DNA of 64,000 bases from an uncultured Acidobacteriia bacterium (GTDB taxonomy: Bacteria; Acidobacteriota; Terriglobia; Bryobacterales; Bryobacteraceae), in assembly GCA_903929755.1 (NCBI GenBank), contig CAIYVZ010000160.1, positions 62,001-126,000 of the forward strand. The letters are read 5' to 3'. The position numbers and the translations under genes are program-made. Below the pieces are notes generated by a model. That model had not been told where the DNA came from, ran no database searches, and saw nothing but the letters and a program-made list of their open reading frames with translations. Of the stretch, positions 1-15,590 are shown in pieces; the first letter of the stretch is position 1; each line of letters opens with the position of its first letter.

Positions 1-396
1 TCCACCGTGGTCGGCCACATTCAGGCCGGCGCTATTGGCTACAACGGCCACGCGGCGAACGGGTTAACCGCCATCTTTATCGCGACCGGCCAGGATGTCG
101 CTAATATCGTCAATTCGGCCCTGGCCATGACGATCTTTGAGCCGCACCCCGAAGGTCTCTACGTCTCCACCACGCTGTCCGCCTTGTCGATTGCCACTAT
201 TGGCGGAGGTACCGGTTTACCCACGCAGCGCGAATGCCTCTCCATCATGGGCTGCGCCGGCAACGGGCACGCAAAGAAATACGCTGAAATCGTGGCTGCC
301 ACCATTCTGGGCGGCGAGATCTCCATGGGCGCGGCCATTGCCTCGCAGGAATTCGTCGGGGCTCACGAACAGTACGGAAGGAACCGGCCCAAATGA
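1..396 (+). CDS. Hydroxymethylglutaryl-CoA reductase, class I type (C-terminal part)
   Basis: This is the C-terminal 131 residues of an HMG-CoA reductase; the start lies outside the window, as the frame is open from base 1. HMG-CoA reductase makes mevalonate from HMG-CoA with two NADPH. Visible marks are the NGHAAN segment, the GQD motif carrying the catalytic Asp, an IGGGTGLPTQ glycine loop, and near the end a His in a GAHEQYG context that matches the catalytic His of class I enzymes. The stop overlaps the next start by four bases (ATGA), so the two are translationally coupled. Many acidobacteria are expected to use the MEP route, so a role in this operon other than bulk isoprenoid supply is possible; that is inference. 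Family call is firm; substrate is not proven. Confidence 0.9.
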   Translation, partial: STVVGHIQAGAIGYNGHAANGLTAIFIATGQDVANIVNSALAMTIFEPHPEGLYVSTTLSALSIATIGGGTGLPTQRECLSIMGCAGNGHAKKYAEIVAATILGGEISMGAAIASQEFVGAHEQYGRNRPK

Positions 397-1169
397 TGGT
401 TGAAGTAACGCCTGCTGAAGTTACGCCTGCTGAAGTAAAGCCGGCTGAAGTAAAACCTGTCGCTTTGGTAACCGGGGGAAGTCGTGGCATCGGCCGCGCA
501 ATCGTGGAGGCGCTGCACGCAGCCGGGTACAAAGTCGCGTTCACCTACGCGTCGAATCCGGATGTCGCCGCTGAACTGCAAACCAAACTCGGGGCCAATG
601 CGCTGGCATTTCAGGCGGATGTGAAAGATTTTGATCGTGCCGCGGCCGTGGTCGCGGAAACGAAAGCCGCGCTCGGCCCTGTCACGGTTCTGGTGAATAA
701 CGCCGGTATCCGGAAAGACGTTTCGCTGGCCCGGATGAGTCCCGACCAATGGAAAGATGTTATTGACACGAATCTGACCGGCGTGTTTAACTACTCCCGT
801 AACGTTATTGGGGGGATGATGCGCAGCGGTGGATCAATCGTCAACGTCACCAGTGTCAGCGGTGTTATCGGTATGGCTGGCCAGACGAACTACAGCGCGT
901 CCAAAGCAGGAGTCATCGGTTTTACGAAGGCGCTGGCAAAGGAAGTTGCCCGGTTCGAAGTGCGGGTCAACGCGATCGCGCCCGGGTTTATTGAGACCGA
1001 TATGACTTCGTCCATCGACGAAGCCACGCGCACCCGCCTCTATGGCGGTATTCCGCTGGGTCGCGCAGGCACCGCGCAGGAAGTCGCAAAGCTCGTCCTG
1101 TATCTTGCCTCCACCGACTCCGGCTACGTAACCGGCCAGGTATGGAATATGGATGGTGGTCTGAGCTAG
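393..1169 (+). CDS. Short-chain dehydrogenase/reductase, FabG-like
   Basis: A 258-residue classical SDR, the family of 3-oxoacyl-ACP reductases. It has the cofactor loop TGGSRGIG (about residues 27-34), the NNAG structural motif, and the catalytic Ser, Tyr and Lys in SVSG followed by NYSASK. The C-terminal GQVWNMDGG resembles FabG. Ahead of the Rossmann fold sits an unusual 20-residue extension made of four V-(T/K)-P-A-E type repeats. The start overlaps the HMG-CoA reductase stop (ATGA). With the following FAD oxidoreductase it suggests ketone/alcohol chemistry on a lipid or polyketide-like intermediate; it may equally be a spare FabG. Family confident, substrate unknown. Confidence 0.9.
   Translation: MMVEVTPAEVTPAEVKPAEVKPVALVTGGSRGIGRAIVEALHAAGYKVAFTYASNPDVAAELQTKLGANALAFQADVKDFDRAAAVVAETKAALGPVTVLVNNAGIRKDVSLARMSPDQWKDVIDTNLTGVFNYSRNVIGGMMRSGGSIVNVTSVSGVIGMAGQTNYSASKAGVIGFTKALAKEVARFEVRVNAIAPGFIETDMTSSIDEATRTRLYGGIPLGRAGTAQEVAKLVLYLASTDSGYVTGQVWNMDGGLS
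399..458 (+). repeat. Four tandem 15-bp units in the SDR 5' coding end
   Basis: Units at 399-413, 414-428, 429-443 and 444-458 share the pattern GCTGAAGTNANNCCT with a few changes. They are in frame and encode VEVTPAEVTPAEVKPAEVKP-like sequence before the SDR fold. The unit length is a multiple of three, so copy number can change without breaking the gene. Confidence 0.9.
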
Positions 1170-1202
1170 TTTTACAACGTCAGCCCGGAATCAAAATGAA
1201 TC

Positions 1203-2816
1203 ATGGCCGCGACACACACCATTTTCGGGCGTCAGTATCCGACAAGCTACGACGCGATTGTGGTTGGCGCCGGAATCGGCGGCTTGTTCTGTGCGAATCT
1301 TCTCGCCAAAGGCGGCATGAAGGTTCTGCTGCTGGAAAAACACTCGGTTCTGGGTGGTTTCTGCTCAGGCTTCCGCCGCAAGGGCTTCCTGTTCGACGCC
1401 GCCACCCACTTCTATCCTCTCCTCGGTAATCCGACAACGCTCTCCGGCCGCCTGCTGAAAGATTTGCAGGTGGAAACCGAATGGATCAAGATGGATCCGG
1501 TGGATCAGTTCCACATCCCCGGCATGAAGACCTTCACGGTCCCCGCCGAATTCGGGCCGTACATTGAGCGGCTCAAAGAATGGTTCCCGGAAGAAGCGCC
1601 GAACGTCGATAACTACTTTCAGGAGCTGAAGAAGGCCCACATGTATGGCCTTCTGTACTACTTCCGCGGTGTCGCGAACGACCAGATGGAGAAGTTCGAG
1701 AAACACACCATCGCGTCCAAACTCGACGAACATTTTAAAGATGCCCGGCTGAAGACCATCCTGATGGGTGACGCGCCGCACTGGGGTTCCTCGCCCAACA
1801 AGACTTCTTACGTTTTCGATGCGATGCTCCGCCTCTCGTACTTCCTCGGGAACTACTACCCCAAGGGAAGTTCGCAGCAATTCGCCAATGATCTGGGAGC
1901 CGCTCTGGAACGCCAGGGCGGCAAAGTTCTGAAATGCGTCGGCGTGGAAAAAATCCTGGTTGACGGCGATAAGTGCGCCGGGGTTCGGGTTGCAACGGTG
2001 TCAAAACGTGCGCCGGAGCACTTCACGTTTCACGCCCCGGTAGTCGTCTCCAACGCCGACGCCATTCACACCTATCGTGACCTCCTGGGTGAAGAAAACG
2101 GTGGTGGCTGGATGACGGACCACCTGAAGTCCCTCAAGACTTCCTACCCCTGTTTCCTGATGCACATCGGCCTGCAGGGGATGGATCCCGACAAACTCGC
2201 GCACTCCGAAGGCTATTACTGGAAACGTTGTGATCCTTCCGACATCATCCCGAACGTCTTCAAAATCTTCGTGCCGACGCGTTTTGATCCGGATATCGCG
2301 CCCCCCGGCTGCCAGATCATCATCACGCAACGCCCCTCGCCCTACATGGCGGGCGATGATATCGACTGGGCCGCCCACAAGGCCGACCTGCAGGCGAAAA
2401 CGCTGGCGCGTGTCCGCGAAGAGCACCCGGATATCGACGATCACATCGTCACCATCTCTTCCGCCACCGCCATGACGTCCCAGCGCTTCACCGGGAACTG
2501 GCAGGGCGGCATGCTGGGCTGGGAAATGTCTCCCGACCAGCTCGGGCCCTCGCGCCTGCCTATTTACACGCCGATCGACAATCTCTATCTCACCGGCCAT
2601 TGGACCCAGCCCGGAGGCGGCATCACCCCTGTCATCGTCTCCGCCCAGCGTGTCGCCAAAGCCATCCTGACGGGCCACGAAGAAGACGCCCGCGAGCTGT
2701 CCGGTTATTATTTCCGCTTTAGCCGGCCCTCCGTAACGCCCGCCGAAGCTGACCTCGGCGCGGCGGTCGAAAGCCTTTCCAACGACGCACTCTTTCGCTC
2801 CGAGCAAATAAAATGA
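1203..2816 (+). CDS. Phytoene desaturase/CrtISO-like FAD-dependent oxidoreductase
   Basis: A 537-residue flavoprotein of the carotenoid desaturase/isomerase and retinol saturase superfamily. The N-terminus carries the FAD dinucleotide fold VVGAGIGGL (about residues 20-28) ending in the acidic LLLEKH strand, then GGFCSGF. The C-terminus has the family signature LYLTGHWTQPGGGITPV, which closes the FAD site, followed by a helix. The length fits the family. It begins 33 bases after the SDR and its stop overlaps the next start by four bases. Such enzymes desaturate or isomerise polyenes, and relatives also occur in lipid clusters with FAS-like enzymes. No phytoene synthase or other carotenoid gene is in view, so a carotenoid role cannot be claimed. 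Confidence 0.88.
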   Translation: MAATHTIFGRQYPTSYDAIVVGAGIGGLFCANLLAKGGMKVLLLEKHSVLGGFCSGFRRKGFLFDAATHFYPLLGNPTTLSGRLLKDLQVETEWIKMDPVDQFHIPGMKTFTVPAEFGPYIERLKEWFPEEAPNVDNYFQELKKAHMYGLLYYFRGVANDQMEKFEKHTIASKLDEHFKDARLKTILMGDAPHWGSSPNKTSYVFDAMLRLSYFLGNYYPKGSSQQFANDLGAALERQGGKVLKCVGVEKILVDGDKCAGVRVATVSKRAPEHFTFHAPVVVSNADAIHTYRDLLGEENGGGWMTDHLKSLKTSYPCFLMHIGLQGMDPDKLAHSEGYYWKRCDPSDIIPNVFKIFVPTRFDPDIAPPGCQIIITQRPSPYMAGDDIDWAAHKADLQAKTLARVREEHPDIDDHIVTISSATAMTSQRFTGNWQGGMLGWEMSPDQLGPSRLPIYTPIDNLYLTGHWTQPGGGITPVIVSAQRVAKAILTGHEEDARELSGYYFRFSRPSVTPAEADLGAAVESLSNDALFRSEQIK

Positions 2817-5173
2817 GCTATCAAATTCCTGGTTTTCTGAAACTACCCGCTGTCCTGATCGAGTCCGGCCTGCACGTTATTCAGGCTGCCGCCGAAACTG
2901 CACAAATCGCTCTTTCGAAAGCCACCGGACAAAAAAACTCGGGAGACATGGGCCCCGCTCCCCTTGCCGGACCTCCGGATATCGATACAGCCCTCTCCGA
3001 TTTCGCGGCGCGTGCGGTGCGCATTATTCGCAGCACTCCGCTCGAAACCGGCGAAATTCCCAGCCTGTCTGCAAACCTGGTCGATGCCGCCCGCCGTGCC
3101 TTCAGTTTCGTGGATCTGAAAGATTCCAATGCCCTGGCCCTGCCCGTCCAGTTGGCGCTTTCCGCCACCAGTCTTGCCGCTCAGTCCTCTCTGCGCGGCC
3201 TTGTCACGCTTGAAGTTCTTGGACCCGACCGAATCGAACCTCTGATTACAGACTTCGTCCAGATGTTTACTGAGCTTCCGGTCTACGTTGGCCTGGAATA
3301 CAAACAGGCCATGGAGAAGTGTAAGGCTCGCCTCGAAGTTGCTCCCGACGACCATAAGACCCGGATGGAACTGGGCGACATGCTGGTCAAATGCGGCCTC
3401 TACGAACAGGCGGTTGAGGAGCTTGCTAAGGTTCCGCGCGAATCCGATGTGTTTGCCGACGCCACCCACGAAGCGGCGGTTGCCCTCTACCGTTCAGGCC
3501 AGCTGGAAAAATGTATGCGCGCGTGCGTCGCTTCTCTGGAAGCCCGCCCCGGCCATGCCCGCACCCGGTCCTGGCTCTGGCTCGCCGCCCAGAAGAACAA
3601 AGGCGTCTTCCCCGATTGGGTTCCCGCCAATTGCCGCATGGTGGTGAAGGTCGGCTGGGAAAAGCCGACGCTCCAGTTCAAAGACATTGCAGCCCAAATC
3701 GGTCTCGATAAGACCAGTGCGGGCCGCGGGATTGCCATCTTCGATTCCACGAACGATGGCTTTCAGGATGTGCTGATTGCCGCCGCCCACGGTGGCTGCA
3801 ACTTTTACCGCAACAACGGCAACGGGACCTTCACCGACGCTTCCATCGCCTCAGGTCTGGACAAGTGCGTGAACGGTTTCGCCATCACCGTCGGCGATTA
3901 CGATAACGACGGTTTCACCGATGTCTTCGTCACCCGCCTCGGCTTCTACGGTGGCGAATGCCAGCTCTTCCACAACAACGGCGACGGCACGTTCACCGAC
4001 GTCACCGCCAAAGCCGGGCTTAAGGTCTGGGGCCCCGCCTTCGCCGCGTCGTGGGTCGATTACGATAACGACGGTAAGCTCGATCTCTTCATCGCCAACA
4101 ACCTGGGTGGCCTCTTTGAACGGAAGACGCCCAACCGCCTCTTCCACAACAATGGCGACGGTACCTTCACTGAAGTTTCGGCCAAAGCGGGAATCCATAC
4201 CCCCTGGCCGACCAACGCCGGAGCTTGGGGCGATTACAACAACGACGGTTTCCCCGACCTTTTTGTCAGCAACGGCATGGGCCATTCCCAGCTCTATCGC
4301 AATAACGGCAACGGTACCTTCACCGACGTCAGCAGCGAAGCCGGCGTGGAGGAATTGTGCTTTGGCAGTCCCGCCTTCTGGTGGGATTTCGATAACGACG
4401 GGTGGCTCGATATCGGCCAGTTCGCCTGGTCCGACCATGACGATGTGATCCACACCATGGAACACGGCCAGGGCCCTGCCGATGGCAACCCGATGCGTAT
4501 CTATAAGAACAATCGTGACGGCACGTTCACCGAAGTTGGCCGCCAGCACGGTATGGTCGGCTGCTGGGGTACGATGAGCGGCAACGCGGGCGACTTCAAT
4601 AACGACGGCAACATGGACGTGGTTCTCGGCAACGGCAGTCCAAAAATGGACCGCATGGAGCCGATGGTTGTTCTGGAGAACGACGGTAAGAAGTTCCATA
4701 ACATCACGTTTGCGGCCGGTTTCCCGTTTCTGGGCAAGAGCCACGGCGTGAACATGGGCGATCTTTTCGGAGACGGCAGAATGTCCATCCTGGTGGCGGC
4801 CGGCGGCGCGTACCCGGGCGATCTGCTCACCACGAACGTGTTCTGCCCTACCGAATTACCTGGAAATTATCTGAACGTGCGGCTGAAAGGCGTGACGTGC
4901 AACCGGTCGGCGATCGGAGCGCGGATTGTTCTGGAAGCGGGCGGCAAGATCCAGATGCGCGAAATCGCCGGCGGTTCCAATTTCGGATGCCTGCCGCTTG
5001 AGCAGCATTTCGGCCTCGCCGACCTGGAAGCGGTCACGTCTGTGACGGTCCGCTGGCCGGGCGGCGCCACCCAGGTGTTCCACAACCTGCCCATCAACAA
5101 GACCCTCGAATTCATCGAAGGCCAGGACGACTGGGCCGATGTCTACGAACGCGCTTACGCGGCGAAGGCTTAA
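2813..5173 (+). CDS. TPR + FG-GAP/VCBS repeat protein with ASPIC/UnbV C-terminus (CRTAC1-like)
   Basis: A 786-residue protein. Residues 1-170 are mostly helical with no recognised domain; about 170-260 look like tetratricopeptide repeats (YEQAVEELAKV, SGQLEKCMRA). From about 285 to 640 there are repeated FG-GAP/VCBS blades with calcium-loop motifs such as DYDNDGFTD and NNGNGTFTD, forming a predicted beta-propeller. The last 130 residues match ASPIC/UnbV (GARIVLEAGG, GLADLEAVTSVTVRWPGG). Most relatives are exported, but this one starts MSYQIPGFLK with no obvious signal peptide. It is coupled to the FAD oxidoreductase by an ATGA overlap. Its role is unknown; a scaffold or binding partner for the operon's enzymes is inference. 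Confidence 0.88.
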   Translation: MSYQIPGFLKLPAVLIESGLHVIQAAAETAQIALSKATGQKNSGDMGPAPLAGPPDIDTALSDFAARAVRIIRSTPLETGEIPSLSANLVDAARRAFSFVDLKDSNALALPVQLALSATSLAAQSSLRGLVTLEVLGPDRIEPLITDFVQMFTELPVYVGLEYKQAMEKCKARLEVAPDDHKTRMELGDMLVKCGLYEQAVEELAKVPRESDVFADATHEAAVALYRSGQLEKCMRACVASLEARPGHARTRSWLWLAAQKNKGVFPDWVPANCRMVVKVGWEKPTLQFKDIAAQIGLDKTSAGRGIAIFDSTNDGFQDVLIAAAHGGCNFYRNNGNGTFTDASIASGLDKCVNGFAITVGDYDNDGFTDVFVTRLGFYGGECQLFHNNGDGTFTDVTAKAGLKVWGPAFAASWVDYDNDGKLDLFIANNLGGLFERKTPNRLFHNNGDGTFTEVSAKAGIHTPWPTNAGAWGDYNNDGFPDLFVSNGMGHSQLYRNNGNGTFTDVSSEAGVEELCFGSPAFWWDFDNDGWLDIGQFAWSDHDDVIHTMEHGQGPADGNPMRIYKNNRDGTFTEVGRQHGMVGCWGTMSGNAGDFNNDGNMDVVLGNGSPKMDRMEPMVVLENDGKKFHNITFAAGFPFLGKSHGVNMGDLFGDGRMSILVAAGGAYPGDLLTTNVFCPTELPGNYLNVRLKGVTCNRSAIGARIVLEAGGKIQMREIAGGSNFGCLPLEQHFGLADLEAVTSVTVRWPGGATQVFHNLPINKTLEFIEGQDDWADVYERAYAAKA

Positions 5174-5310: not shown

Positions 5311-6390
5311 CTAATAAGGCTGCGTCACCGTGCAAACCTTCGGAGCATTCACCGGATTACAGCGGACGATTCCTGGAATCGAGACGCTGTATCCGGCGCC
5401 CTCCGCTTTCCAGTCATACGGATAATCTGTGCTCAGAATTTGAGCGCCACTGGTGATGGCCGTATCGCGCCGTTTGGTGTCGCCTTCACGGACAGCCTTC
5501 GCGCCGTCATCGGTCATTGTTCGGATCAGGTAGCCCTTGCGCACCAGGTCCGGAATCTCTTTTGCGAACGGATTGTTCATTTTCACGAACGCCGCGTCCG
5601 GCGTTCCAGGCTTACTCGCCGTAAACACCATCCGTCCCCGCAGTGACGGATGGCCCTCCGTATAGAGCGGGGTCACGCGTTCCTGATCCAGTACGAACAC
5701 GATCTTGCCGCGCGCACTATCGAGCGTCGGCCAGCCATCCTGAAGCACCGCCTCTTCCAGAGTGGTGTGCTTGCCACGAACTTCATCTGGAGTCACCACT
5801 TCCGCGGGACTAAACACCTGCCGGATCTCCAGCTCCATCGCGTCCATCGTGGGTTTCGTAATGGTTTCCGGCTGCACAAAACCCGGCTTCGCCTGCCCGT
5901 CCTTGTTCTCCAGCTGGATATAGATCGGCAAATGCCCCGGGTGCGCTTTCGACCAGGCCCTCACATCCTGCAGGCAGGAAACCAGGGTCCAGCAATGGCT
6001 CCGCACGTCCACATCGCTCACGTGCAGAACCTTGAACCCCGGCTTCGTCATCGCCGCCGCCCAACCTGCGGGCATGGGAGTGGATGTGCCTTCTTTCGCG
6101 GTCATCCGAAGGAACAAAGGATCCGCAAACAAGCCGCCCTTCGTGTCACCATAGATGTCGATTTCCAGCTGACGGGCCCCGGCATCCAACTGCGCCGCCA
6201 GGGGTTGATGCCGGTAATTCAGGCTCTCTGCCGCCTTCGGGTTGTCTCGCTTCAAAATGGCCATTTCGCCCGGCCCCAGACCGGCGTGATAGCTGTTGTG
6301 GGTCCCCACAAACTGAATCTGATTCATCCGCAGGCCGTCCTGAGCAAAACCCGGCAGGCAGCACGCAATAACCAATAGAAAGCGACGCAT
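5311..6390 (-). CDS. Secreted calcium-dependent phosphoinositide phospholipase C-like protein
   Basis: A 359-residue protein starting MRRFLLVIACCLPGFAQ, a signal peptide, so I place the start at 6390 rather than at an upstream in-frame ATG at 6420 that would bury the signal. It fits the bacterial Ca2+-dependent PI-PLC (PI-PLC-C1) family: VGTHNSYH near the mature N-terminus holds the first catalytic His; QLEIDIYGD supplies acidic metal ligands; LHVSDVD may hold the second conserved His; KIVFVLDQ and STDYPYDW are later family-like segments. It would act outside the cytoplasm on inositol- or glycerophospholipid headgroups. It is 26 bases downstream of the AAA ATPase gene, but a functional link is not implied. 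Actual substrate is unknown. Confidence 0.8.
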   Translation of the reverse strand: MRRFLLVIACCLPGFAQDGLRMNQIQFVGTHNSYHAGLGPGEMAILKRDNPKAAESLNYRHQPLAAQLDAGARQLEIDIYGDTKGGLFADPLFLRMTAKEGTSTPMPAGWAAAMTKPGFKVLHVSDVDVRSHCWTLVSCLQDVRAWSKAHPGHLPIYIQLENKDGQAKPGFVQPETITKPTMDAMELEIRQVFSPAEVVTPDEVRGKHTTLEEAVLQDGWPTLDSARGKIVFVLDQERVTPLYTEGHPSLRGRMVFTASKPGTPDAAFVKMNNPFAKEIPDLVRKGYLIRTMTDDGAKAVREGDTKRRDTAITSGAQILSTDYPYDWKAEGAGYSVSIPGIVRCNPVNAPKVCTVTQPY

Positions 6391-6416
6391 CTCTTCGAGC
6401 ATAGTAGCCCAAAGTT

Positions 6417-7589
6417 TCAATAGGATGTGAGCCCGTGCAGTTCCCGAGCCAGCTGCCTCACACTGACCGCCTCGGTGACCTCGTCCAGCCGGTACCTCTC
6501 CTCACCGGGGTACACCACGAACCGCCGCTCCGGCTCCAGATCCGCACACGCCGAATGAAAACTCTTCTCCAGCCGGGGCGCGGAACTCCGCTTCACCTCC
6601 ACCACCCACCGCTTCCCGCCCGGTAGCACCAGCACCAGATCCACCTCGGTCCCGTTCGATGTCCGGTAGTAGTAGGGCTCCGTCCCATCCGGCACCACCG
6701 AAATCAGCGTCTCAATCACGAAACTCTCCCATGTATGCCCCACAATCGGATGCCCCAGCAACTCTTCCTTATCCCGAATCCCCAGCAGCGCATGAGCAAT
6801 CCCGCTGTCCCGCACGTAAACCTTCGGAGCCTTCACCATTCGCTTCCCTGGATTCCCGTGCCACGCCGGAAGTCGACGCACCAGCAGCAGATCCACCATC
6901 AGGTCCAGATACCCGGCCACTGTCTTCGCGTCCACCCCCAGCCCCCGCGCCAGATTCGCACCGTTGTGGACCTGCGCCTGATTGTGCGCCAGCATCGTCC
7001 AAAATCGCCGCAGCGTCTCGGCCGCGATTCGGGGCCCCAATTGCGGAATATCTCGCTCCAGATACGTCTTAATGAAATCCCGCCGCCAAGTCAGGCTGAG
7101 CCCGTCCGACTCAGCCAAAAAACTCCTCGGAAAACCGCCTCGAACCCAAAGCGCCTCCACGTCTTTCTCATCCACCTCCAACGCGTCGAAAGGCCCCAGC
7201 TCCAGGTACGATATTCGCCCCGCCAGACTCTCGCCCGCCTGTTGCATCAGGTCCATCGCCGCTGACCCCAGCAACAGGAACCGGCCATTCGCTTTACCCT
7301 CCCGCCGACCCTGGTCAATCACGCCCCGCAACCTCTGGAACAACTCCGGTGCCCGCTGCACCTCGTCCAGAATCACCAGCTCATCCTCATGATCGGCAAA
7401 GTACAGTGCAGGATTTGTCAGTTTCGCCCGGTCATCCGGGTTTTCCAGATCCAGATAGACCGACCGTCGCCCCGCACCTACCTCGAGAGCCAGCGTCGTC
7501 TTACCCGCCTGGCGTGGCCCCAGCAGGACCACCGCTGGCGAGTGCTGCAACAAGAAATTCAGTAGACTTTGAATATGCCGGGAGTGCAT
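6417..7589 (-). CDS. AAA ATPase with DUF4143 C-terminal domain
   Basis: A 390-residue protein of the widespread AAA_14 + DUF4143 family. Walker A is GPRQAGKTT (about residues 24-32) and Walker B is LVILDEVQ (about 71-78); the sensor-like LLLGSAA follows. The second half carries the DUF4143 features YLERDIPQLG, a winged-helix-like stretch, and near the end the nuclease-like pattern EVDLVLVLPGG...WVVEVK, which resembles a PD-(D/E)XK core (E-x-D and E-x-K). Members are often solitary, laterally moved and scattered near TA genes, as here. Their biochemical role is not settled. The start at 7589 gives the family N-terminus RHIQSLLNFLLQHSPAVVLLGPRQ in order. Confidence 0.88.
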   Translation of the reverse strand: MHSRHIQSLLNFLLQHSPAVVLLGPRQAGKTTLALEVGAGRRSVYLDLENPDDRAKLTNPALYFADHEDELVILDEVQRAPELFQRLRGVIDQGRREGKANGRFLLLGSAAMDLMQQAGESLAGRISYLELGPFDALEVDEKDVEALWVRGGFPRSFLAESDGLSLTWRRDFIKTYLERDIPQLGPRIAAETLRRFWTMLAHNQAQVHNGANLARGLGVDAKTVAGYLDLMVDLLLVRRLPAWHGNPGKRMVKAPKVYVRDSGIAHALLGIRDKEELLGHPIVGHTWESFVIETLISVVPDGTEPYYYRTSNGTEVDLVLVLPGGKRWVVEVKRSSAPRLEKSFHSACADLEPERRFVVYPGEERYRLDEVTEAVSVRQLARELHGLTSY

Positions 7590-7704
7590 ATATGTAATTG
7601 TGGACTAAAACTCCTGATTTGCATGCATGTTAAGTTTCTCGCTGCCATAGCCCCTTCCCACTCACCCCGCGCAGGTCATACAATAAACCCTGACGTACAA
7701 AGTA

Positions 7705-10700
7705 ATGCGGCCCAACTTAATCGTTCTCTGCGCAGGCTTCGCTTTAGCCCTCCCCAGCTTCGCCGCCGTCGATTTCGATCGCGAAATCCGGCCCATTCTC
7801 TCGGAAAACTGCTTTACCTGCCACGGCCCCGACGAGACCAAACGCATGGCGAAGCTGCGCCTTGACATCCCCGATGGCGGTGGTCTCACCAAGGGCATCA
7901 TTACGCCCGGCAACTCCGCGCAGAGTCGCATCCTGCAGCGCGTGTCGGCCTCCAATAACCGGATGCCCCCCGCCGTCACCGGCAAAACGCTCACCCCGAA
8001 GCAGGTTGAGACTCTTACCAGATGGATTGACGAAGGTGCGAAGTGGCAATCCCACTGGGCCTTTACCGCGCCCATTCGCCGCGACCCTCCCGCCATCACC
8101 TCTTCCTGGCCGAAGAACCCCGTCGATAATTTCATTCTGGCCCGCCTCCAGAAAGAGAGCCTGAAACCTTCTCCCGAAGCCGACCGCGCCACTCTCCTCC
8201 GCCGCGTCACCTACGATCTGACCGGCCTCCCGCCAACCCCAACCGAAATCGACTCCTTCCTGGCGGACAAAGCCCCCAATGCCTACGAAAAGCGCGTCGA
8301 CGCCCTCCTCGCCTCCCCCCGCTACGGCGAACGCATGGCCGCCCAGTGGCTCGACCTCGCTCGCTACGCCGACACGCATGGTTATCACATCGACTCCCAC
8401 CGCGAAGCCTGGCACTGGCGCGACTGGGTGGTCTCCGCCTTCAACAGCAACCTTCCCTACGACCAGTTCACCGTCTGGCAACTCGCCGGCGACCTGCTGC
8501 CCAACGCCACCACCGAACAGAAACTCGCCAGCGGCTTCAACCGCAACCACATGATTAACTTCGAGGGAGGTGCCATCCCCGAGGAGTACCAGACCGAATA
8601 CGTGATCGACCGCCTCGAAGCCACCTCCATGACGTGGCTCGGGCTCTCCATGGGCTGCGCCCGCTGCCACGATCACAAATACGACCCCATCCCCCAACGC
8701 GATTTCTATCGCTTCTTCGCCTTCTTCAACAACGTCAGCGAAAAGGGTCTGGATGGCCGCAACGGCAACGCCGAACCTTTCTTACAGTTGCCGACACCCG
8801 AGCAGAAGACTCGGCAGGGCGAACTGAAAGCCGCCATCAAGGCCCACGAAGCATCTCTCCCGGAGCCAGAAATCGCCGCCAAACAGGATAAATGGGAACA
8901 GGCGCAAGCGGCTCTCATGAAGTCGATCGCGCGCAACGGTCTGGTCGCCCACTACGAATTCGACGGCAATCTTGCGGATTCCTCCGGCGGCTACCAGTAC
9001 GGCCGCACCGTCCTCGGTGACCTTACCTTCTCGAACGGTGCGGTTGACCGCGGAGCTGATTTCGATGGGGAGGCCCACGCCGTTCTCGGTCATGCCGCTG
9101 CCTTCGAGCGAGACAAACCCTTCTCCGCCGCCCTCTGGCTCAAGGTCAACTCCAAGCAAAAGGTCCCTGTTTTCCAGCAACTCGAAGGCGGCAAAGGCAT
9201 CAGTGTCTGGCTCGATGATTTCGAACTCTCGGGCGTCCAGCAGCGCGTCCCGCGTCTGTACCTGAAACTCGCCGCCGCCGACACCAACGCTCTCGAAATC
9301 CGCACCACCGACCGGCTCCCCTGGCCCGCCAACATGAACCACGTGGTCCTCAGCTACGACGGTTCGGGAAAAGCGGCAGGCCTTCGCGTGATCGTCAACG
9401 GTACGCAAGTCAAAACCGAAACCCTCCGCGACACCCTGACCGCCGCGACCACCACCGCCACAGCCCCCCTCGAATTCGCCGCTTTCAAGGGCAAGGTGGA
9501 CGACCTCCGCATCTACACCCGCGAACTCACCGCCGCCGAGATCACACACCTCAATAGCCAGGAATCGCTCCGCGCCACCCTGAATATCCCCGCCGCGAAG
9601 CGCTCCACCGACCAGAAAACCTGGATCCGCGACTACTACCTCGTCAACGCCGCCCCCGCCGCCGACCGCAAAGCCTGGGCCGAGCTCAAGACCCTCCGCG
9701 AGGACGACAAGAAGCTGACCGCCGCCATCCCCACCACCATGGTGATGTCCGAACTGACCGATAAACCCCGCGAGTCCTTCATTCTGGCCCGCGGCGACTA
9801 CCGCAACCAGACCGAAAAGGTCACCGCCGGAACCCCCACCGTCCTGCCGCCCATGGCGAAGGATCTCCCGGCCAACCGCCTCGGTCTCGCCCAGTGGTTC
9901 GTCGATCCCAATCACCCCCTCACCTCGCGTGTCGCCGTTAACCGCTTCTGGCAGAACTACTTCGGCACCGGCCTCGTCAAGACTGCGGAGAATTTCGGCT
10001 CCCAGGGCGAGCCCCCCGTCAACCAGGAACTCCTCGACTGGCTTGCCACCGAATTCGTCCGTACTGGCTGGGATGTGAAGGGCATGCAGAAGCTCCTGGT
10101 CACCTCCGCCGCCTACCGTCAGGCTTCAAAGGTCACGCCCGAACTCCTGGAAAAAGATCCCGAAAACCGCCTCGCCTCCCGAGGTCCCCGCTTCCGCCTC
10201 TCCGCCGAAATGGTTCGAGACGGGGAACTCTATCTGTCCGGCATCCTGAAAGAACAGCAGGGCGGGGCACCCGTGAACCCCTATCAGCCCTATGGCGTCT
10301 GGGAAGAAATCGCCTATGGTGACGGCTTCACCTCACAGGCCTACTTACAGGGAAAGGGGGATGAACTCCGCCGCCGGTCGCTGTATACCTTCTGGAAGCG
10401 CACCGCGCCCCCACCAGAGATGACCACCTTCGACGCGCCCGACCGTGAAAAATGCGCCGCGCGCCGGACCCTCACCAATACGCCCCTGCAGGCACTGGTC
10501 CTGCTCAACGACACTACCTATGTGGAAGCTGCCCGCTGGCTCGCCACGCGAATGGTGCTTGACGGCGGCAAGACTCCAGCTGCTCGCCTGGATCTCGGGT
10601 TCCGCCTGGCCACCGCGCGACACCCCTCCGCGAAGGAAGTCGCCATCCTCAAGGAAACGCTCGACGCCCAACTCCTCGACTACAAACGCCACGAGGACAA

Positions 10701-10842
10701 AGCTGACGCCCTTCTGAAGAACGGTGCCACCCCCCTCGATCCCCGGGTCGCCCATGCCAAAATCTCCAATCAGGAGCTAGCCGCCTGGACCACGGTGGCC
10801 AGCATGATCCTCAATCTCGACGAAACGATCACGAAGCAATGA
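7705..10842 (+). CDS. PSCyt1/PSCyt2/PSD1 (DUF1549/DUF1553) secreted protein with LamG insert
   Basis: A 1,045-residue exported protein with signal peptide [20 protein letters not shown]. Domain order: PSCyt1 cytochrome-like domain with CFTCHG (about residues 36-41), PSCyt2/DUF1549 from about 140 to 370 including a second haem-type motif CARCH, then a LamG/concanavalin-like domain (about 405-625; [18 protein letters not shown] at its start), then PSD1/DUF1553 (about 730-1030; [18 protein letters not shown]). This family expanded in planctomycetes and Solibacter-type acidobacteria and is usually paired with a DUF1501 protein, as here with an ATGA overlap. A periplasmic role in polysaccharide breakdown or redox is often suggested but unproven. 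Confidence 0.9.
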
Positions 10843-12254
10843 TGCCCCTCACTTCCACACGCCGCCATTTCTTCGGGAAAGCCGCCGCCGGCATCGGCAT
10901 CCCCGCACTTGCCTCGCTCCTCCAGGCCGATAGCGGTGGTCTCGCAGGCCTTCCCCACTTTCCAGCCAAAGCCAAGCGGGTCATCTATCTCCACCAGTCC
11001 GGCGGACCCTCGCAGCTCGACCTCTTCGACTACAAACCTGGCCTCAACAAGAGCCACGGCATCGAATTACCCGCCTCCGTCCGCAACGGCCAGCGCATCA
11101 CCGGCATGACCTCGGGGCAGGCCTCGTTCCCCGTCACCAAGTCGATCTTCAATTTCAGCCAGCACGGCAAATCCGGCACCTGGCTCAGCGAACTTCTTCC
11201 CCACACCGCCAAAATCGTCGATGACATCGCCATCGTCAAGACCGTCAACACGGAAGCCATTAACCACGACCCCGCCATCACGTTCATCCAGACCGGCAGC
11301 CAGCAGCCCGGCCGCCCCAGTTTCGGCGCGTGGCTCAGCTACGGCCTCGGTAGCGAAAACCAGAATTTGCCGGCGTTCGTCGTGCTCATCGCCCAGTCGT
11401 CCGCCGTCAATACTGACCAGCCCTTGTTCTCCCGCCTCTGGGGCAACGGCTTCCTGCCGTCCAAGTACCAGGGCGTGAACTTCCGCGCTTCGGGCGACCC
11501 CGTCCTCTACCTCTCCGACCCTCCCGGCATCGACCGCGAAGCCCGCCGCCGCATGCTCGACGGCATCGGCAAGCTGAACCACCTCAACGGCGAAACCTAC
11601 GGCGACCCCGAGATTGAAACCCGCATCGCCCAGTACGAAATGGCCTTCCGGATGCAAACCTCGGTGCCGGACCTGATGGACCTCTCGAAGGAACCACAGT
11701 CCACCTTCGATCTCTACGGCCCCGAAGCCCGCAAGCCCGGTTCCTATGCCGCCCACTGCCTCCAGGCCCGCCGCCTGGCGGAACGCGGAGTCCGCTTCAT
11801 CCAGATCTACAAACGAGGTTGGGACCAGCACAACGACCTCCCAAGGGACCTCGCCCTGCAATGCCAAAGCGTAGACCAACCGTCCGCCGCTCTCATCCAG
11901 GATCTCAAACAGCGAGGCCTGCTCGATGACACCCTCGTCATCTGGGGCGGGGAATTCGGCCGAACGGTCTACTGCCAGGGCAAGCTCATGAACGGCAACT
12001 ACGGTAGAGACCACCACCCCCGCTGCTTCAGCATGTGGATGGCGGGCGGAGGCATCAAACCCGGCCTGAGCATGGGAGAAACCGACGACTTCAGCTACAA
12101 CATAGTCGCCGACCCCGTCCACGTCCACGACATCCAGGCGACGGTCTTACGTTGCCTGGGAATTGACCACAAACGCCTCACCTACAAGTTCCAGGGTCGC
12201 GACTTCCGCCTGACCGACGTAGCCGGCAACCTCGTCCCCGCCCTCATGGCATAG
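10839..12254 (+). CDS. DUF1501 family protein
   Basis: A 471-residue member of DUF1501, an alkaline phosphatase/sulfatase superfamily branch. The N-terminus [23 protein letters not shown] looks like a twin-arginine export signal. Family features are [20 protein letters not shown] near the start, [11 protein letters not shown], the central RGWDQHNDL and late in the protein [10 protein letters not shown] and [19 protein letters not shown], which carry the putative metal ligands. Two ATGs lie in tandem at 10839 and 10842; the first overlaps the PSD1 stop. The enzyme pair is a standard module in this lineage; substrate unknown. Confidence 0.9.
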
Positions 12255-12286
12255 ATCGTCTGTAACTACAAAAAGAGTTACGTGAG

Positions 12287-12562
12287 ATGATATTTGAGTG
12301 GGACGACGACAAAGCGGCACAAAACGTCGTCAAACATCGAGTGTTCTTCGAATATGCAATCCGGGTGTTTCTCGATGCCCACCGGCTGGACAGCGAGGAC
12401 GCGCGCCGCGACTACCGTGAGGAACGGCGACTCGTTCTCGGGAGAATTGAGGGACGTATTTTTGCCGTAGCTTACACGCGGAGAGCTACTGCAATCCGGG
12501 TGATTTCCGCAAGGAAAGCGAACGACCGCGAGAGGAGGAAGTATGAAGCGCTATCGACTTGA
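12287..12562 (+). CDS. brnT: BrnT family toxin
   Basis: A 91-residue BrnT ribonuclease-type toxin. It has the family opening FEWDDDKAAQNVVKHRVFFEYA (WD..KA..N..KHxV.F), the central RRLVLGRIEGRIFAVAYTRR and the closing IRVISARKANDRERRKYE. BrnT toxins cleave RNA and are neutralised by BrnA, which follows and overlaps by 20 bases. The pair normally represses its own promoter. A second brnTA pair lies at 57331-57857 on the other strand. Confidence 0.92.
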   Translation: MIFEWDDDKAAQNVVKHRVFFEYAIRVFLDAHRLDSEDARRDYREERRLVLGRIEGRIFAVAYTRRATAIRVISARKANDRERRKYEALST

Positions 12563-12821
12563 TCCCCAGGCACCCCACGAGATGACCGCCGCCGAACTGA
12601 AGGCCCTGGATGCAGCGCCCATCGACTACTCCGACATCCCACCTCTCGGAGATGACTTCTTCGCGAAAGCGAGTGCCGACTGGCCGCCCGCCAAACACCA
12701 GCTCACGATCCGCCTCGATGCCGATGTCCTCGACTGGCTGAAAGCCAACGGCAGGGGCTACCAGACCCGCATCAACCACATCCTGCGCGCTGCCATGGAC
12801 AGCACCCGAGCGACAAGGTAG
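12543..12821 (+). CDS. brnA: BrnA family antitoxin
   Basis: A 92-residue antitoxin of the BrnA_antitoxin family. The C-terminal half shows the DNA-binding ribbon-helix-helix style sequence LTIRLDADVLDWLKANGRGYQTRINHILR typical of BrnA. The N-terminal acidic and flexible part would wrap the toxin. It overlaps brnT by 20 bases, the usual toxin-first order of this system. The RBS AGGAGG-like run lies inside the end of brnT just before 12543. Confidence 0.9.
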   Translation: MKRYRLDPQAPHEMTAAELKALDAAPIDYSDIPPLGDDFFAKASADWPPAKHQLTIRLDADVLDWLKANGRGYQTRINHILRAAMDSTRATR

Positions 12822-12885
12822 TCATGGGGTATTCACCTGTGAATAGTCCTTTCGGAAGTCGTCAAAAAGAACTGAGAGCGCCTGC

Positions 12886-13272
12886 CTAACTTTTGACGCC
12901 AACCCATTTTTCGCGGCACCGCTTTGTATGATTCTGTGCCAGGTCGTCGCCCCCAGAACAATGCTCTGATCCCGCTTTGGTGTCACCATTTCGTGCAGTT
13001 CCAAACTGGCAAAGAATATCGTTAAGCCCTGCGCGGACACCTTCCTCGTTCAGGTTTTCTATCACCGCACGGCAGTCCTTCAGCCCCTGCAATGGCATGG
13101 CACCAACCGCCTGCCCTATTTCTCGAAGCAGCTTTTCCGCAGGGTCCTCTTGCTGGCTTAAGAGTAGACCCGCACTGATAAGTTGACATCCGATGAAAGA
13201 GACAACGGCCCTAAGAAAAAGCCCCGATCTCATTTGTATGAATTGTCTCCTCATCTCGATAAAGATCCTCAT
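12886..13272 (-). CDS. Small protein of unknown function with N-terminal hydrophobic segment
   Basis: A 128-residue protein I do not recognise. Residues about 16-38 (LFLRAVVSFIGCQLISAGLLL) form a possible signal or membrane anchor, followed by a helical, charged middle (EDPAEKLLREIGQAV) and a Cys/His/Gly-rich tail. Its start overlaps the stop of the upstream minus-strand gene by four bases (ATGA), which supports that both are real and co-expressed. The DNA here is visibly less GC-rich than its neighbours, in keeping with acquired DNA between two toxin-antitoxin modules. No function is proposed. Confidence 0.5.
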   Translation of the reverse strand: MRIFIEMRRQFIQMRSGLFLRAVVSFIGCQLISAGLLLSQQEDPAEKLLREIGQAVGAMPLQGLKDCRAVIENLNEEGVRAGLNDILCQFGTARNGDTKAGSEHCSGGDDLAQNHTKRCREKWVGVKS

Positions 13273-13556
13273 TCCGCCTGAGGTCCCGAACTTGACAGGT
13301 TGATTCGGGCCCGGTGCTTGAGTTCAGCAGCAACACCCCAGTGATCCAAACTCGTCGCGAGCCGACTGGGTTGATGATCTGCCAGGCACTCCATCGAAAC
13401 CAGCAACATGTAGACTCTCCCGGCATCGCACACTGTAAAGGTCCATCCGCCTGTTCTCAGGTCTTTCTGGCTGTCGATTTCACCATTGGGAAAGCTCGCC
13501 CTTAGATATTCCACGACTACATCGAAAGTGGTGCGGTCAGGTGTCGTGCCCTTCAC
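13269..13556 (-). CDS. Small protein of unknown function, upstream partner of the 12886-13272 gene
   Basis: A protein of up to 95 residues; the first available start is GTG at 13556, with no clear ribosome-binding site, and an internal in-frame GTG is an alternative. The middle, with VVEYLRASFPNGEID, WTFTVCDAGRVYMLLVS and SLDHWGVAAELKHRARI, reads like a compact alpha/beta fold with alternating strands. I do not recognise the family. It couples to the next gene by an ATGA overlap. Position between brnTA and higBA and the low GC suggest a mobile or defence-associated pair, but that is inference. Confidence 0.5.
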   Translation of the reverse strand: MKGTTPDRTTFDVVVEYLRASFPNGEIDSQKDLRTGGWTFTVCDAGRVYMLLVSMECLADHQPSRLATSLDHWGVAAELKHRARINLSSSGPQAE

Positions 13557-13614
13557 TATAGTGGAAAGTTCTGCGGTCGATCAGACGAAATGGGGCTGCA
13601 AAATCCGCTTTTGC

Positions 13615-14049
13615 CTAAATAAACAGCCCCGCCGACACCCGAAATCTTTCCCCCAGCCGCCGGGCTTGTTCTTTACTAATCGCCCGCCGCCGAGCCAAAA
13701 CATCGGAAACCCGGGCCCGCGACCCGAACAACTCTGCCAAATCCACCGGCCGCAAATCATTCGCCTCCATCAGGAACTGAAGCGCGTCCACTGGGTCCCC
13801 GTTCTCCTTCATCGCGTAAGCCTTCTCTTCGAACCGCTCCGAAAGATTCAGCAGGAGGGCCAGCAATACATCCTCCTCCGCTGTCAACCCGCCCTCGCCC
13901 TTCGACATCAGCGCCTCAATCACCGCAAGCGCCGCATCATTCTCCGCCTCGGTCTCAATTACCTTCGGAGTGAACCGAGCCAGGAGCTTGCCGTACTTGC
14001 GCGTGTCAATCCCACCGGATCCGGCAATCTGTGTGTCGAGCGAGATCAT
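13615..14049 (-). CDS. higA: HigA-type antitoxin (helix-turn-helix)
   Basis: A 144-residue antitoxin of the HigA/COG5499 kind. The N-terminal half is helical with conserved ENDAALAVIEALMS and EEDVLLALLLNLSERFEEKAY-like sequence. The C-terminal half has the Xre-type helix-turn-helix LMEANDLRPVDLAELFGSRARVSDVLARRR. It would bind HigB and the promoter. Its start overlaps the higB stop by four bases (ATGA), giving the higB-higA order usual for this system. Confidence 0.9.
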   Translation of the reverse strand: MISLDTQIAGSGGIDTRKYGKLLARFTPKVIETEAENDAALAVIEALMSKGEGGLTAEEDVLLALLLNLSERFEEKAYAMKENGDPVDALQFLMEANDLRPVDLAELFGSRARVSDVLARRRAISKEQARRLGERFRVSAGLFI

Positions 14050-14330
14050 TTCCAGCCCCCTTTGTCGTATTCCTTGTGCGTGAGAATTGCCTTGATGTAG
14101 ACCGCCTGGTTGCGGAAGTTGATAAACGCAATCAGGCGGTACCGATTTAATACAATGTCGAAGACAGTCTTATCGCCGACAGAGTCTGACTTCGAAAACG
14201 TCTCCTTCACTTCGGCCCCAGTTGTCCACTGTGCCTGCCGAACCACCCGGAACCACGTCTCGAGTGCGGCCCTGGAATCGCTGTGTTTCGCAGCGAACTC
14301 CCGGATAGCCTTGCGGCTAATGATCCTCAC
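14046..14330 (-). CDS. higB: HigB-type mRNA interferase toxin
   Basis: A 94-residue toxin of the HigB superfamily (RelE-like fold), which cleaves mRNA on the ribosome. I chose the GTG at 14330 because it gives the family start VRIISRKAIREF; the longer frame upstream has no family similarity. Other marks are WFRVVRQAQWTTGAEVKETF, DKTVFDIVLNRYRLIAFINF and the C-terminal THKEYDKGGW, where Tyr and Asp/Lys are typical. It is followed by higA with an ATGA overlap. The exact start is uncertain by a few codons. Confidence 0.88.
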   Translation of the reverse strand: MRIISRKAIREFAAKHSDSRAALETWFRVVRQAQWTTGAEVKETFSKSDSVGDKTVFDIVLNRYRLIAFINFRNQAVYIKAILTHKEYDKGGWK

Positions 14331-14426
14331 CTCTCGATGTTGCCAGAATGGCAACCATAACGCAAGGCCCAAATCACGAATCCTGCTGACGCCCCGAGCC
14401 GCCACCCCGCATCCAATAAACCTCAC

Positions 14427-14822
14427 ATGAACCACGCCGTAGTCATCTTCGACGGAGAATGCAGCTTCTGTAACCGCTGGGTGGATTTCCTCCTCCGCTT
14501 CGACCGCAAAGATATCTTCCGTTTCGCCGCGCGTCAGTCCGCCGCCGGAGCTGCCTTCGCCGCTAAAAGCGGCCTCCCCCCGGAAGGTGTCGGCTCCATC
14601 ATCGTCGTCCAGCATGGCCAGGTCCTCCTGCGCTCGGACGCCGTCTTGAGGCTCCTAACCCTCCTCGGCCTCCCCTTCTCGTTCATGGGCGTCTTTCGCC
14701 TGATCCCCACCGGCCTTCGCGATGCAGCCTACGACCTCATCGCCCGCAACCGCCATCGCTGGTCCCGGAAATCCCTCCAGTGCCGCATCCCCTCGCCCGT
14801 CGAACGACACCGATTCCTGTAG
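14427..14822 (+). CDS. DCC family thiol-disulfide oxidoreductase (DUF393)
   Basis: A 131-residue protein of the DCC family. It begins VVIFDGECSFCNRWVDFLLR, giving the DxxCxxC redox motif (Asp10, Cys13, Cys16), and continues with RFAARQS and the IIVVQHGQVLLRSDAVLRLL segment that fixes the family. It is a small thioredoxin-like cytoplasmic or membrane-associated oxidoreductase of unknown partner. It stands alone, divergent from higBA by about 96 bases. Confidence 0.9.
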   Translation: MNHAVVIFDGECSFCNRWVDFLLRFDRKDIFRFAARQSAAGAAFAAKSGLPPEGVGSIIVVQHGQVLLRSDAVLRLLTLLGLPFSFMGVFRLIPTGLRDAAYDLIARNRHRWSRKSLQCRIPSPVERHRFL

Positions 14823-14895
14823 CCCGCCACCGCAACCCAAACCGCTCTTCTCTGCGACTTCTCCACCTCTTCCCCCGCCACCCACTCCACCAGGC

Positions 14896-15071: not shown

Positions 15072-15275
15072 ATGAGAGAAAAAGGTACTGTGAAGTGGTT
15101 TAACGCGGCCAAGGGCTTCGGATTCATTCAGCGCGAAACGGGCGAAGACGTCTTCGTTCATTTCTCCGCCATCCAGTCGAACGGTTACCGTTCGCTCGAT
15201 GAAGGTTCGCGAGTTGAGTTCGAAGTGACCCAGGGGCCCAAGGGTCTCCAGGCGTCGAACGTCACCGCAATCTAA
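15072..15275 (+). CDS. Cold-shock protein (CspA family)
   Basis: A 67-residue single cold-shock domain, an RNA chaperone. RNP1 is KGFGFIQ and RNP2 is VFVHFSAI; the start [15 protein letters not shown] and the end [10 protein letters not shown] are canonical. The start is preceded by AGAGG. The unusual point is its leader with a terminator-like hairpin and the strong hairpin just after the stop. Which of the organism's csp genes this is cannot be told. Confidence 0.95.
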
Positions 15276-15286
15276 ATGATCAGTGT

Positions 15287-15585: not shown

Positions 15586-15590
15586 GAGCG

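What the first reader, a model, noticed from the sequence alone, without database searches (positions are those of the whole stretch)
1..5173. HMGR-SDR-CrtISO-CRTAC1 operon of unknown purpose
Four genes, three of the four joints with ATGA overlap or short spacing, put a class I HMG-CoA reductase next to a FabG-like reductase, a CrtI/CrtISO-like flavoenzyme and a TPR/FG-GAP/ASPIC-UnbV protein lacking a signal peptide. This mix is odd: no mevalonate, phytoene synthase or carotenoid genes are in view. The set could make a lipid or polyene whose carbon comes partly through HMG-like chemistry.
Basis: partly seen in the sequence, partly recalled or inferred. Interest (0 to 1): 0.72.

Follow-up and report, generated by a model that had tools for sequence, protein, structure and literature searches.

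The report
Lipid-making operon with repurposed HMGR enzyme
An acidobacterium carries a twelve-gene operon in which a relative of the statin-target enzyme HMG-CoA reductase sits inside a ladderane-like fatty-chain assembly line, where it probably cuts finished chains loose as alcohols instead of making isoprenoids.

Summary
The DNA to the left shows a 12-gene operon: five FG-GAP/TPR proteins, then ACP, ketosynthase (KS), a Cys-less chain-length-factor-like KS (CLF), the HMGR homologue, SDR, CrtI-like flavoenzyme and the last FG-GAP/UnbV protein. The genome has IspG of the MEP route and no HMG synthase. In 61 non-identical HMGRs of this clade the four catalytic residues are invariant, but residues that grip HMG are lost (Lys735 kept in 1 of 61, Arg590 in 0 of 61). 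KS+CLF precede HMGR in 41 of 50 testable loci; CrtI follows within 1.8 kb in 48 of 53; most are Acidobacteriota. Nearest known: the anammox ladderane-candidate module (ACP-FabZ-KS-CLF-CrtI-radical SAM), without HMGR, and FcrA, a published HMGR homologue that reduces fatty acyl-CoA, not HMG-CoA. Best reading: a ladderane-type type II fatty-acid/polyketide system whose chain is released as an alcohol by an FcrA-like enzyme. "Lipid or polyene" is supported; "HMG-like chemistry" is not. The product is unknown; nothing was tested at the bench.

The parts
1..396 (+). 3' end of the HMGR homologue (P0001, 408 aa; whole gene L002:18170-19396, i.e. from 830 bases left of base 1): catalytic residues kept, HMG-binding residues lost; proposed acyl-thioester reductase. 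Left of it, outside the window on the same strand in L002 (window position = L002 position - 19000): FG1 5666-8026, FG2 8023-9732, TPR 9729-10526, FG3 10511-12280, TPR/FG-GAP 12277-15498, ACP 15503-15775, KS 15772-16989, CLF 16986-18182
   Evidence: KS and CLF starts chosen by me at the ATGA overlaps, 30 and 21 bases inside the listed ORFs
393..1169 (+). FabG-like SDR, 258 aa, with GxxxGxG, NNAG and YxxxK
1203..2816 (+). CrtI/CrtISO-like FAD oxidoreductase, 537 aa, with GxGxxG
2813..5173 (+). TPR/FG-GAP/UnbV protein FG4, 786 aa, last gene of the operon

Best explanation
The operon is a dedicated type II fatty-acid/polyketide assembly line of the anammox ladderane-candidate type. ACP carries the chain, the KS/CLF pair extends it with malonyl units, the FabG-like SDR reduces the beta-keto groups, and a housekeeping dehydratase probably removes water, giving an unsaturated or polyene chain. 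The CrtI-like flavoenzyme then desaturates or isomerises the chain. The HMGR homologue does not make mevalonate: with two NADPH it reduces the finished acyl thioester to a free alcohol and so releases it. The alcohol is then probably acylated or built into a membrane or storage lipid, perhaps by the PlsC-type acyltransferase that many relatives carry in the cluster, and the FG-GAP/UnbV proteins handle or display it. Shown here: gene content, operon order, conservation, residue pattern, phylogeny, no HMG synthase found. Inferred: substrate (acyl-ACP or acyl-CoA), product, order of steps, role of the FG-GAP proteins.
For: Left flank gives ACP, KS, CLF in one operon of 12 genes, seven of eleven joints 4-base overlaps. 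Conservation in L076-L139 (64 loci): KS+CLF upstream in 41 of 50, ACP in 34 of 43, CrtI within 1.8 kb in 48 of 53 with enough flanking DNA. HMGR clade: Glu559, Lys691, Asp767, His866 equivalents 61 of 61; Lys735 kept 1 of 61, Arg590 0 of 61, Asp690 is Glu in 61 of 61, Leu862 is Phe in 58 of 61. Lys735 forms the salt bridge to the HMG carboxylate (PMC9500038, passages). Own genome: one HMGR, no HMG synthase, IspG. Among 40 searched genomes with the cluster, 26 have IspG and no HMG synthase. Precedent: FcrA, an HMGR homologue shown to reduce fatty acyl-CoA to alcohol and not HMG-CoA; some bacterial FcrA are fused to an ACP domain (PMC11948995, abstract and sections 18-20). The 24 acidobacterial HMGRs of the 42-49% group carry Glu684, Trp862 and no Lys735 as described for FcrA (24 of 24), and the cluster clade plus this group form one side of a branch against canonical HMGRs (SH-aLRT 98). 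KS and CLF best PDB hits are 9s5h chains B and C; 9s5h_C is 81-94% identical to the CLF of 12 of 14 fetched planctomycete loci with the ACP-KS-CLF-CrtI order, and 12 of those 14 genomes hold hydrazine synthase.
Against: No product or activity is known. The cluster HMGRs have Phe, not Glu, at 684, so FcrA activity cannot be assumed. Position 735 is Arg in 9 and His in 20 of 61, which could still meet a negative group in those members. Loss of a binding residue shows an altered substrate, not which one. No dehydratase or enoyl reductase is in the operon. SDR directly behind HMGR is found in only 16 of 58 loci, so it is not part of the universal core. Nine of 50 loci with enough upstream DNA lack KS or CLF within the distance searched. 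Nine of 40 cluster genomes do have an HMG synthase. The larger KS set that unites cluster, anammox and ishigamide KSs has only 80 support.
Confidence: 0.6

Rival explanations
1. A true HMG-CoA reductase feeds mevalonate into a hybrid polyketide/isoprenoid or a mevalonate-starter product.
For: The protein is over the Pfam PF00368 cut-off (362.6 bits against 27) and all catalytic residues are present; it sits next to a CrtI-like enzyme.
Against: No HMG synthase, no mevalonate kinase over cut-off, Lys735, Arg590 and Asp690 not conserved, score below the HMGR equivalog cut-off (319.6 against 441.8). Three genomes (G015, G246, G238) carry a canonical-type HMGR as well as the cluster one, which speaks for separate jobs; but this is weakened by the one traced case: the G015 contig is the L121 contig (G325), and G325 shows no HMG synthase.
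Confidence: 0.08
2. The HMGR homologue is a reductase of soluble fatty acyl-CoA (FcrA proper) that supplies alcohols for wax or ether lipids, and its place beside KS/CLF/ACP is co-regulation only.
For: FcrA precedent, including a suggested role in ether lipids beside PlsC-like genes (PMC11948995); the cluster enzymes share the lost lysine and a bulky residue at 862; the 42-49% group lies near an ABC1-kinase family in 10 of 25, a patatin family in 8 of 25 and a WS/DGAT family in 4 of 25 loci (Pfam checks on 2, 1 and 4 of them); a PlsC-type acyltransferase is a frequent neighbour of the cluster (37 of 67 loci).
Against: The cluster clade has Phe in place of the FcrA Glu at 684, is a separate clade, and is tied to KS/CLF/ACP/CrtI in most testable loci.
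Confidence: 0.17
3. The operon makes an aryl polyene or flexirubin-type pigment bound to the outer membrane.
For: KS/CLF/ACP/KR set; the SDR scores 241 bits with the flexirubin SDR FlxB model.
Against: The FlxB cut-off is 340; Pfam shows no ammonia lyase, dehydratase, AMP ligase or glycosyltransferase in the 12 genes; HMGR and CrtI homologues are not parts of aryl polyene clusters as I recall them.
Confidence: 0.08
4. The CrtI-like enzyme and the RPE65 homologues of some relatives act on real carotenoids, and the KS/CLF part is a separate neighbour.
For: CrtI family hit (TIGR02734, 175.5 bits); RPE65-family gene in 12 of 67 loci (tblastn; Pfam on two of them).
Against: Below the CrtI family cut-off of 238.1; the own genome's two SQS_PSY genes are a tandem pair that matches HpnC/HpnD best (HpnC over its cut-off, HpnD just under: 261.1 against 278.6), so no clear phytoene synthase; CrtI-like enzymes also sit in the anammox ACP-KS-CLF module, and two anammox ones failed to make lycopene in E. 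coli (PMC4790861, passages).
Confidence: 0.07

Closest known systems
Anammox ladderane-candidate cluster kuste3603-3608 (Kuenenia stuttgartiensis; PMC2649909, PMC4790861, passages of each)
   Same: ACP, FabF, non-canonical FabF with the same kind of active-site loss (His333 to Glu) and a CrtI-like enzyme in the same order; own KS is 51-55% identical to the listed anammox-type KSs.
   Different: Here HMGR and SDR stand between CLF and CrtI; no FabZ and no radical SAM gene in the operon, while Pfam finds both in the two anammox-type loci checked for both; large FG-GAP/UnbV genes added; CLF and CrtI only 32-38% identical.
FcrA, HMGR-related fatty acyl-CoA reductase (PMC11948995)
   Same: Class I HMGR fold, catalytic Glu/Lys/Asp/His kept, HMG-binding lysine lost, bulky residue at 862; genomes mostly without HMG synthase.
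   Different: Phe in place of Glu at 684 (and Phe where N. pharaonis FcrA has Trp at 862); separate clade from the acidobacterial 42-49% group; partner genes are KS/CLF/ACP/CrtI, not WS/DGAT. The main text holds no 'polyketide', 'ketosynthase', 'phytoene' or 'Acidobacteri' (find), though it names one Holophagaceae FcrA next to WS/DGAT; figures and supplements were not seen, so this clade could lie in their 'putative FcrA'.
Class I HMG-CoA reductase of the mevalonate pathway
   Same: Fold and catalytic residues.
   Different: HMG-binding residues lost; HMG synthase not found in the genome.
Ishigamide-type polyene KS/CLF (PDB 6kxd)
   Same: Second-best PDB hit of the KS; KS/CLF pair that makes a polyene (recalled; entry title seen).
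   Different: Very long branch in the KS tree; no HMGR in that cluster that I recall.

Membership tests
Class I HMG-CoA reductase (mevalonate pathway) | Catalytic Glu559, Lys691, Asp767, His866 | tested here: met
   61 of 61 non-identical cluster sequences
Class I HMG-CoA reductase (mevalonate pathway) | HMG-binding residues (Arg590, Ser684, Asp690, Lys692, Lys735) | tested here: not met
   Arg590 0 of 61, Ser684 0 of 61, Asp690 0 of 61, Lys692 5 of 61 (Arg in 52), Lys735 1 of 61 (Arg in 9, His in 20); canonical acidobacterial HMGRs keep all five, 8 of 8
Class I HMG-CoA reductase (mevalonate pathway) | Over the curated cut-off of TIGR00533 | tested here: not met
   P0001 319.6 against 441.8; cluster 0 of 4, FcrA-like 0 of 2, canonical 2 of 4 over the cut-off (except P0001, sequences were trimmed to the matched stretch, which may lower their scores)
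Class I HMG-CoA reductase (mevalonate pathway) | HMG synthase and mevalonate kinase in the genome | tested here: not met
   PF08540 none; TIGR00549 three weak matches, none over cut-off
FcrA (fatty acyl-CoA reductase) | Loss of the HMG-binding lysine | tested here: met
   60 of 61; the paper prints Lys795, which I take to be Lys735
FcrA (fatty acyl-CoA reductase) | Bulky residue at 862 (Trp in N. pharaonis) | tested here: met
   Phe in 58 of 61, not Trp; the 42-49% group has Trp in 24 of 24
FcrA (fatty acyl-CoA reductase) | Glu in place of Ser684 | tested here: not met
   Phe in 57 of 61, Leu 3, Ile 1; alignment at this position is less sure than at 735
FcrA (fatty acyl-CoA reductase) | Reduces long-chain acyl-CoA, not HMG-CoA | not testable with these tools
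   needs enzyme assay
Ladderane-candidate KS/CLF module | ACP, KS, Cys-less CLF and CrtI-like gene in one operon | tested here: met
   home operon; relatives; anammox comparators:
Ladderane-candidate KS/CLF module | FabZ and radical SAM enzyme in the operon | tested here: not met
   none of the 12 genes; both present in anammox-type loci L172 and L177, FabA-like domain also in L183
Ladderane-candidate KS/CLF module | Makes ladderane lipids | not testable with these tools
   needs lipid analysis
Aryl polyene / flexirubin cluster | Aryl starter enzymes and dehydratase; SDR over the FlxB cut-off (features recalled) | tested here: not met
Phytoene desaturase CrtI | Over the TIGR02734 cut-off | tested here: not met
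   175.5 against 238.1

The most novel reading that the evidence does not exclude
A widespread and so far undescribed class of acidobacterial lipids: polyene or even ladderane-like ring-bearing fatty alcohols, built by a ladderane-type KS/CLF/CrtI module and released by an HMGR-derived acyl-ACP reductase, which would be a new kind of off-loading enzyme for a type II fatty-acid/polyketide line.
Probability: 0.3. Interest if true: 0.88.

Novelty: new variant of a known kind. Interest (0 to 1): 0.7.

Why it matters
It would show that the HMGR fold has been recruited as a chain-releasing reductase in a fatty-acid/polyketide line, extending the FcrA discovery from wax esters to a biosynthetic cluster. 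It also places the ladderane-type KS/CLF/CrtI module, whose product chemistry is an old open question, in many Acidobacteriota. Genes annotated as HMG-CoA reductase in such genomes are likely misnamed, so mevalonate-pathway calls made from them alone would be wrong.

Tried and rejected
Ordinary mevalonate pathway: rejected. Carotenoid operon: the genome's SQS_PSY pair looks like HpnC/HpnD. Chance neighbourhood: rejected.

Foldseek of a predicted CLF (L077; mean pLDDT 84.1) against PDB gave mostly general FabF/KS matches, with ishigamide KS/CLF at ranks 18 and 31 of the 50 shown; PDB 9s5h was not among the 50 shown, so its title was not seen. That 9s5h comes from an anammox ladderane-candidate cluster is inferred: its CLF letters agree at six positions with those printed for Kuste3606 in PMC2649909, and it is 94% identical to the CLF of L177, whose genome G553 holds hydrazine synthase. 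A paper search for 9S5H gave one unrelated listing.

Promoter/terminator scan after the operon showed nothing useful. Paper searches listed no paper that I recognised as describing this cluster; only open-licence PMC papers are held, only the top of each list was seen, and most listed papers were not opened, so this does not prove that none exists.

The genome-contig scan used two exact peptide patterns, so its 67 loci are a lower bound and lean towards sequences with those motifs. The 64 loci L076-L139 come from 61 record sets, since L111/L126, L112/L124 and L131/L138 share a record prefix (titles). Rows dropped: eight short HMGRs of the cluster set (L140 counted with it) and one short odd hit before the residue table; identical rows counted once, which removed four duplicates, so and not one search is the figure to use; L140-L142 left out of the synteny counts. 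The alignment at Ser684 is ungapped in MAFFT, but HMMER sets it differently against human HMGR, so that position is less sure than Lys735. In the 25 loci, L043 and L067 overlap on one contig and L056 is a 38% outlier.
Full report
What is in the window. The four genes are as described: the 3' end of an HMGR homologue (1-396), a FabG-like SDR (393-1169), a CrtI-like flavoenzyme (1203-2816) and a TPR/FG-GAP/UnbV protein (2813-5173), all on the + strand. The window is G000:C160:62001-126000 of a 6.86 Mb assembly, 97.89% complete and 1.75% contaminated. Closest relatives by HMGR are a Bryobacterales and a Terriglobia MAG at 95-96% identity.

What lies left of base 1. Fetched DNA (L002; window position = L002 position - 19000) shows eight further complete genes and the rest of HMGR on the same strand: FG-GAP/UnbV (5666-8026), FG-GAP/UnbV (8023-9732), TPR (9729-10526), FG-GAP/UnbV (10511-12280), TPR+FG-GAP (12277-15498), ACP (15503-15775), KS (15772-16989), CLF (16986-18182), HMGR (18170-19396). 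Of the eleven joints between the twelve genes seven are 4-base overlaps, one is a 4-base gap, and three are -16, -13 and +33 (start codons as chosen there). The ACP carries DSL, the KS keeps Cys/His/His, and the CLF has Leu for Cys and Glu for the second His. SDR and CrtI-like protein keep their cofactor motifs.

It is a conserved cluster. One scan of the species-genome collection with an alignment of six HMGRs of the clade gave 67 loci. Of L076-L139 (64 loci), those with enough flanking DNA show KS and CLF upstream in 41 of 50, ACP in 34 of 43, CrtI within 1.8 kb downstream in 48 of 53, SDR in 16 of 58, FG-GAP within 4.5 kb downstream in 17 of 49. By record titles 55 of the 64 are Acidobacteriota, the rest Planctomycetota (2), Verrucomicrobiota (2), Latescibacterota (2), Poribacteria, Zixiibacteriota and Myxococcota (1 each); MAG labels may be wrong. 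Extra genes found by tblastn anywhere in the 67 loci: PlsC-type acyltransferase 37, ABC1 kinase 17, tryptophan-halogenase-like flavoenzyme 14, RPE65-family oxygenase 12, TetR 11, phasin-like 9, cNMP-binding/patatin protein 7 (Pfam families of representatives; 'phasin-like' is my own label, Pfam gave no family). In the home genome TetR (L198:5054-5671) and the acyltransferase (L198:5677-7242) lie on the same contig, about 3 kb past the right edge of the window.

The HMGR homologue is not a mevalonate enzyme by its context and residues. The home genome has one HMGR, IspG (the only MEP gene I searched), no HMG synthase and no mevalonate kinase over cut-off. I searched the genomes of 40 of the 67 loci: 26 have IspG and no HMG synthase over cut-off, 7 HMG synthase and no IspG, 2 both, 5 neither (completeness of these genomes is not given). 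In 61 non-identical cluster sequences, P0001 among them, the four catalytic residues are invariant, Arg590 is kept in 0, Asp690 is Glu in 61, Lys692 is Arg in 52, and Lys735 is kept in 1, with His in 20, Ser in 19 and Arg in 9. In PMC9500038 (passages) Lys735 makes the salt bridge to the HMG carboxylate, and Arg590, Ser684, Asp690, Lys691, Lys692 and Asn755 make polar contacts.

Three HMGR clades in Acidobacteriota. In a phylum search 45 of 297 genomes, the home genome among them, have an HMGR homologue. The cluster clade, a 42-49% group (24 sequences) and canonical HMGRs (8) each form one side of a branch (100, 99, 99 SH-aLRT, quick tree), and the first two together against canonical plus human and archaeal (98). 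The 42-49% group has Glu at 684, Trp at 862 and Val or Ile at 735 in 24 of 24. These are the changes described for FcrA, an HMGR homologue shown by Grossi et al. to reduce fatty acyl-CoA to alcohol and not HMG-CoA (PMC11948995: abstract, sections 18-20 read in full, other passages). Families near that group: ABC1 kinase in 10 of 25 loci, patatin in 8 of 25, WS/DGAT in 4 of 25 (Pfam checks on 2, 1 and 4 of them). I had reached 'acyl-thioester reductase' from the residues before finding that paper (then 92). The cluster clade shares the lost lysine and a bulky 862 residue (Phe) but has Phe, not Glu, at 684, so it is FcrA-like rather than FcrA by the published description. Genomes G015 and G246 carry all three types and G238 the cluster and canonical types.

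The KS/CLF part is ladderane-like. Best PDB hits are 9s5h_B for KS (E 1.4e-144) and 9s5h_C for CLF (E 7.5e-62). The 9s5h_C letters at six active-site positions match Kuste3606 as printed in PMC2649909. A search of 343 genomes of the planctomycete phylum found a KS match at E up to 1e-100 in 31. I fetched 14 of these loci: all 14 show ACP, KS, a second KS-type gene and CrtI in that order, and none has an HMGR hit. Pfam finds a FabA/FabZ-like domain in the three I checked and a B12/radical SAM protein in the two checked for it. Hydrazine synthase is in 12 of these 14 genomes, so most or all are anammox bacteria. PMC4790861 (passages) lists kuste3603-3608 as ACP, FabZ, FabF, non-canonical FabF, phytoene desaturase and radical SAM enzyme. 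In the KS tree the 45 cluster KSs form one clade (99), inside a set with the anammox-type and ishigamide KSs that has only 80 support.

Mechanism. Chain assembly by ACP/KS/CLF with the SDR is well supported by family membership. Dehydration must come from elsewhere, since no dehydratase is in the operon. CrtI-like desaturation or isomerisation of the acyl chain is inferred from its place in both cluster types. Reductive release by the HMGR homologue is inferred from residues, phylogeny, FcrA and gene order. Whether the donor is acyl-ACP or acyl-CoA, and whether the product is a polyene, a ring-bearing chain or an ether or ester lipid, is open. FG-GAP/UnbV proteins recur beside part of the clusters, but their role is a guess.

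Verdict. I rate it a new variant of a known kind: a ladderane-type type II chain-building module with a built-in FcrA-like reductase.

Noticed in passing
L043-L055, L057, L062, L066, L067, L069-L075 (42-49% HMGR group): These acidobacterial 'HMG-CoA reductases' carry all three residue changes described for FcrA in 24 of 24 and are probably misannotated fatty acyl-CoA reductases; four loci have a WS/DGAT wax synthase gene nearby.
   Followed up: partly
L098, L103, L105 and others, downstream of HMGR: Some clusters add a tryptophan-halogenase-like flavoenzyme followed by an RPE65-family (carotenoid-cleavage type) oxygenase, which hints at a polyene substrate. Pfam was run on L105 (both genes) and L098 (RPE65) only.
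   Followed up: partly
L198:5054-7242 (about 3 kb right of the window's last base): TetR plus PlsC-type acyltransferase, cluster genes in relatives, are about 62 kb away from the operon in this genome, with phasin-like (26% identity) and DinB-like genes on the other strand.
   Followed up: partly
L002:750-5320, minus strand (left of the window): A cytochrome c554/TPR protein and another FG-GAP/UnbV protein are divergent from the operon; in seven relatives (L082-L088) a cytochrome/TPR gene family lies upstream on the same strand as the cluster (Pfam run on the L082 member).
   Followed up: no
L042:1956-5843 and L109:4354-9126: ABC1 kinase, a weakly UbiB-like protein and phasin-like proteins (my label) next to the cluster suggest a lipid-granule context.
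   Followed up: no
window 7705-10842: Large protein with a 'CFTCHG' haem-binding stretch near its start, like planctomycete-type cytochrome/DUF1549-DUF1553 proteins (recalled, not searched).
   Followed up: no
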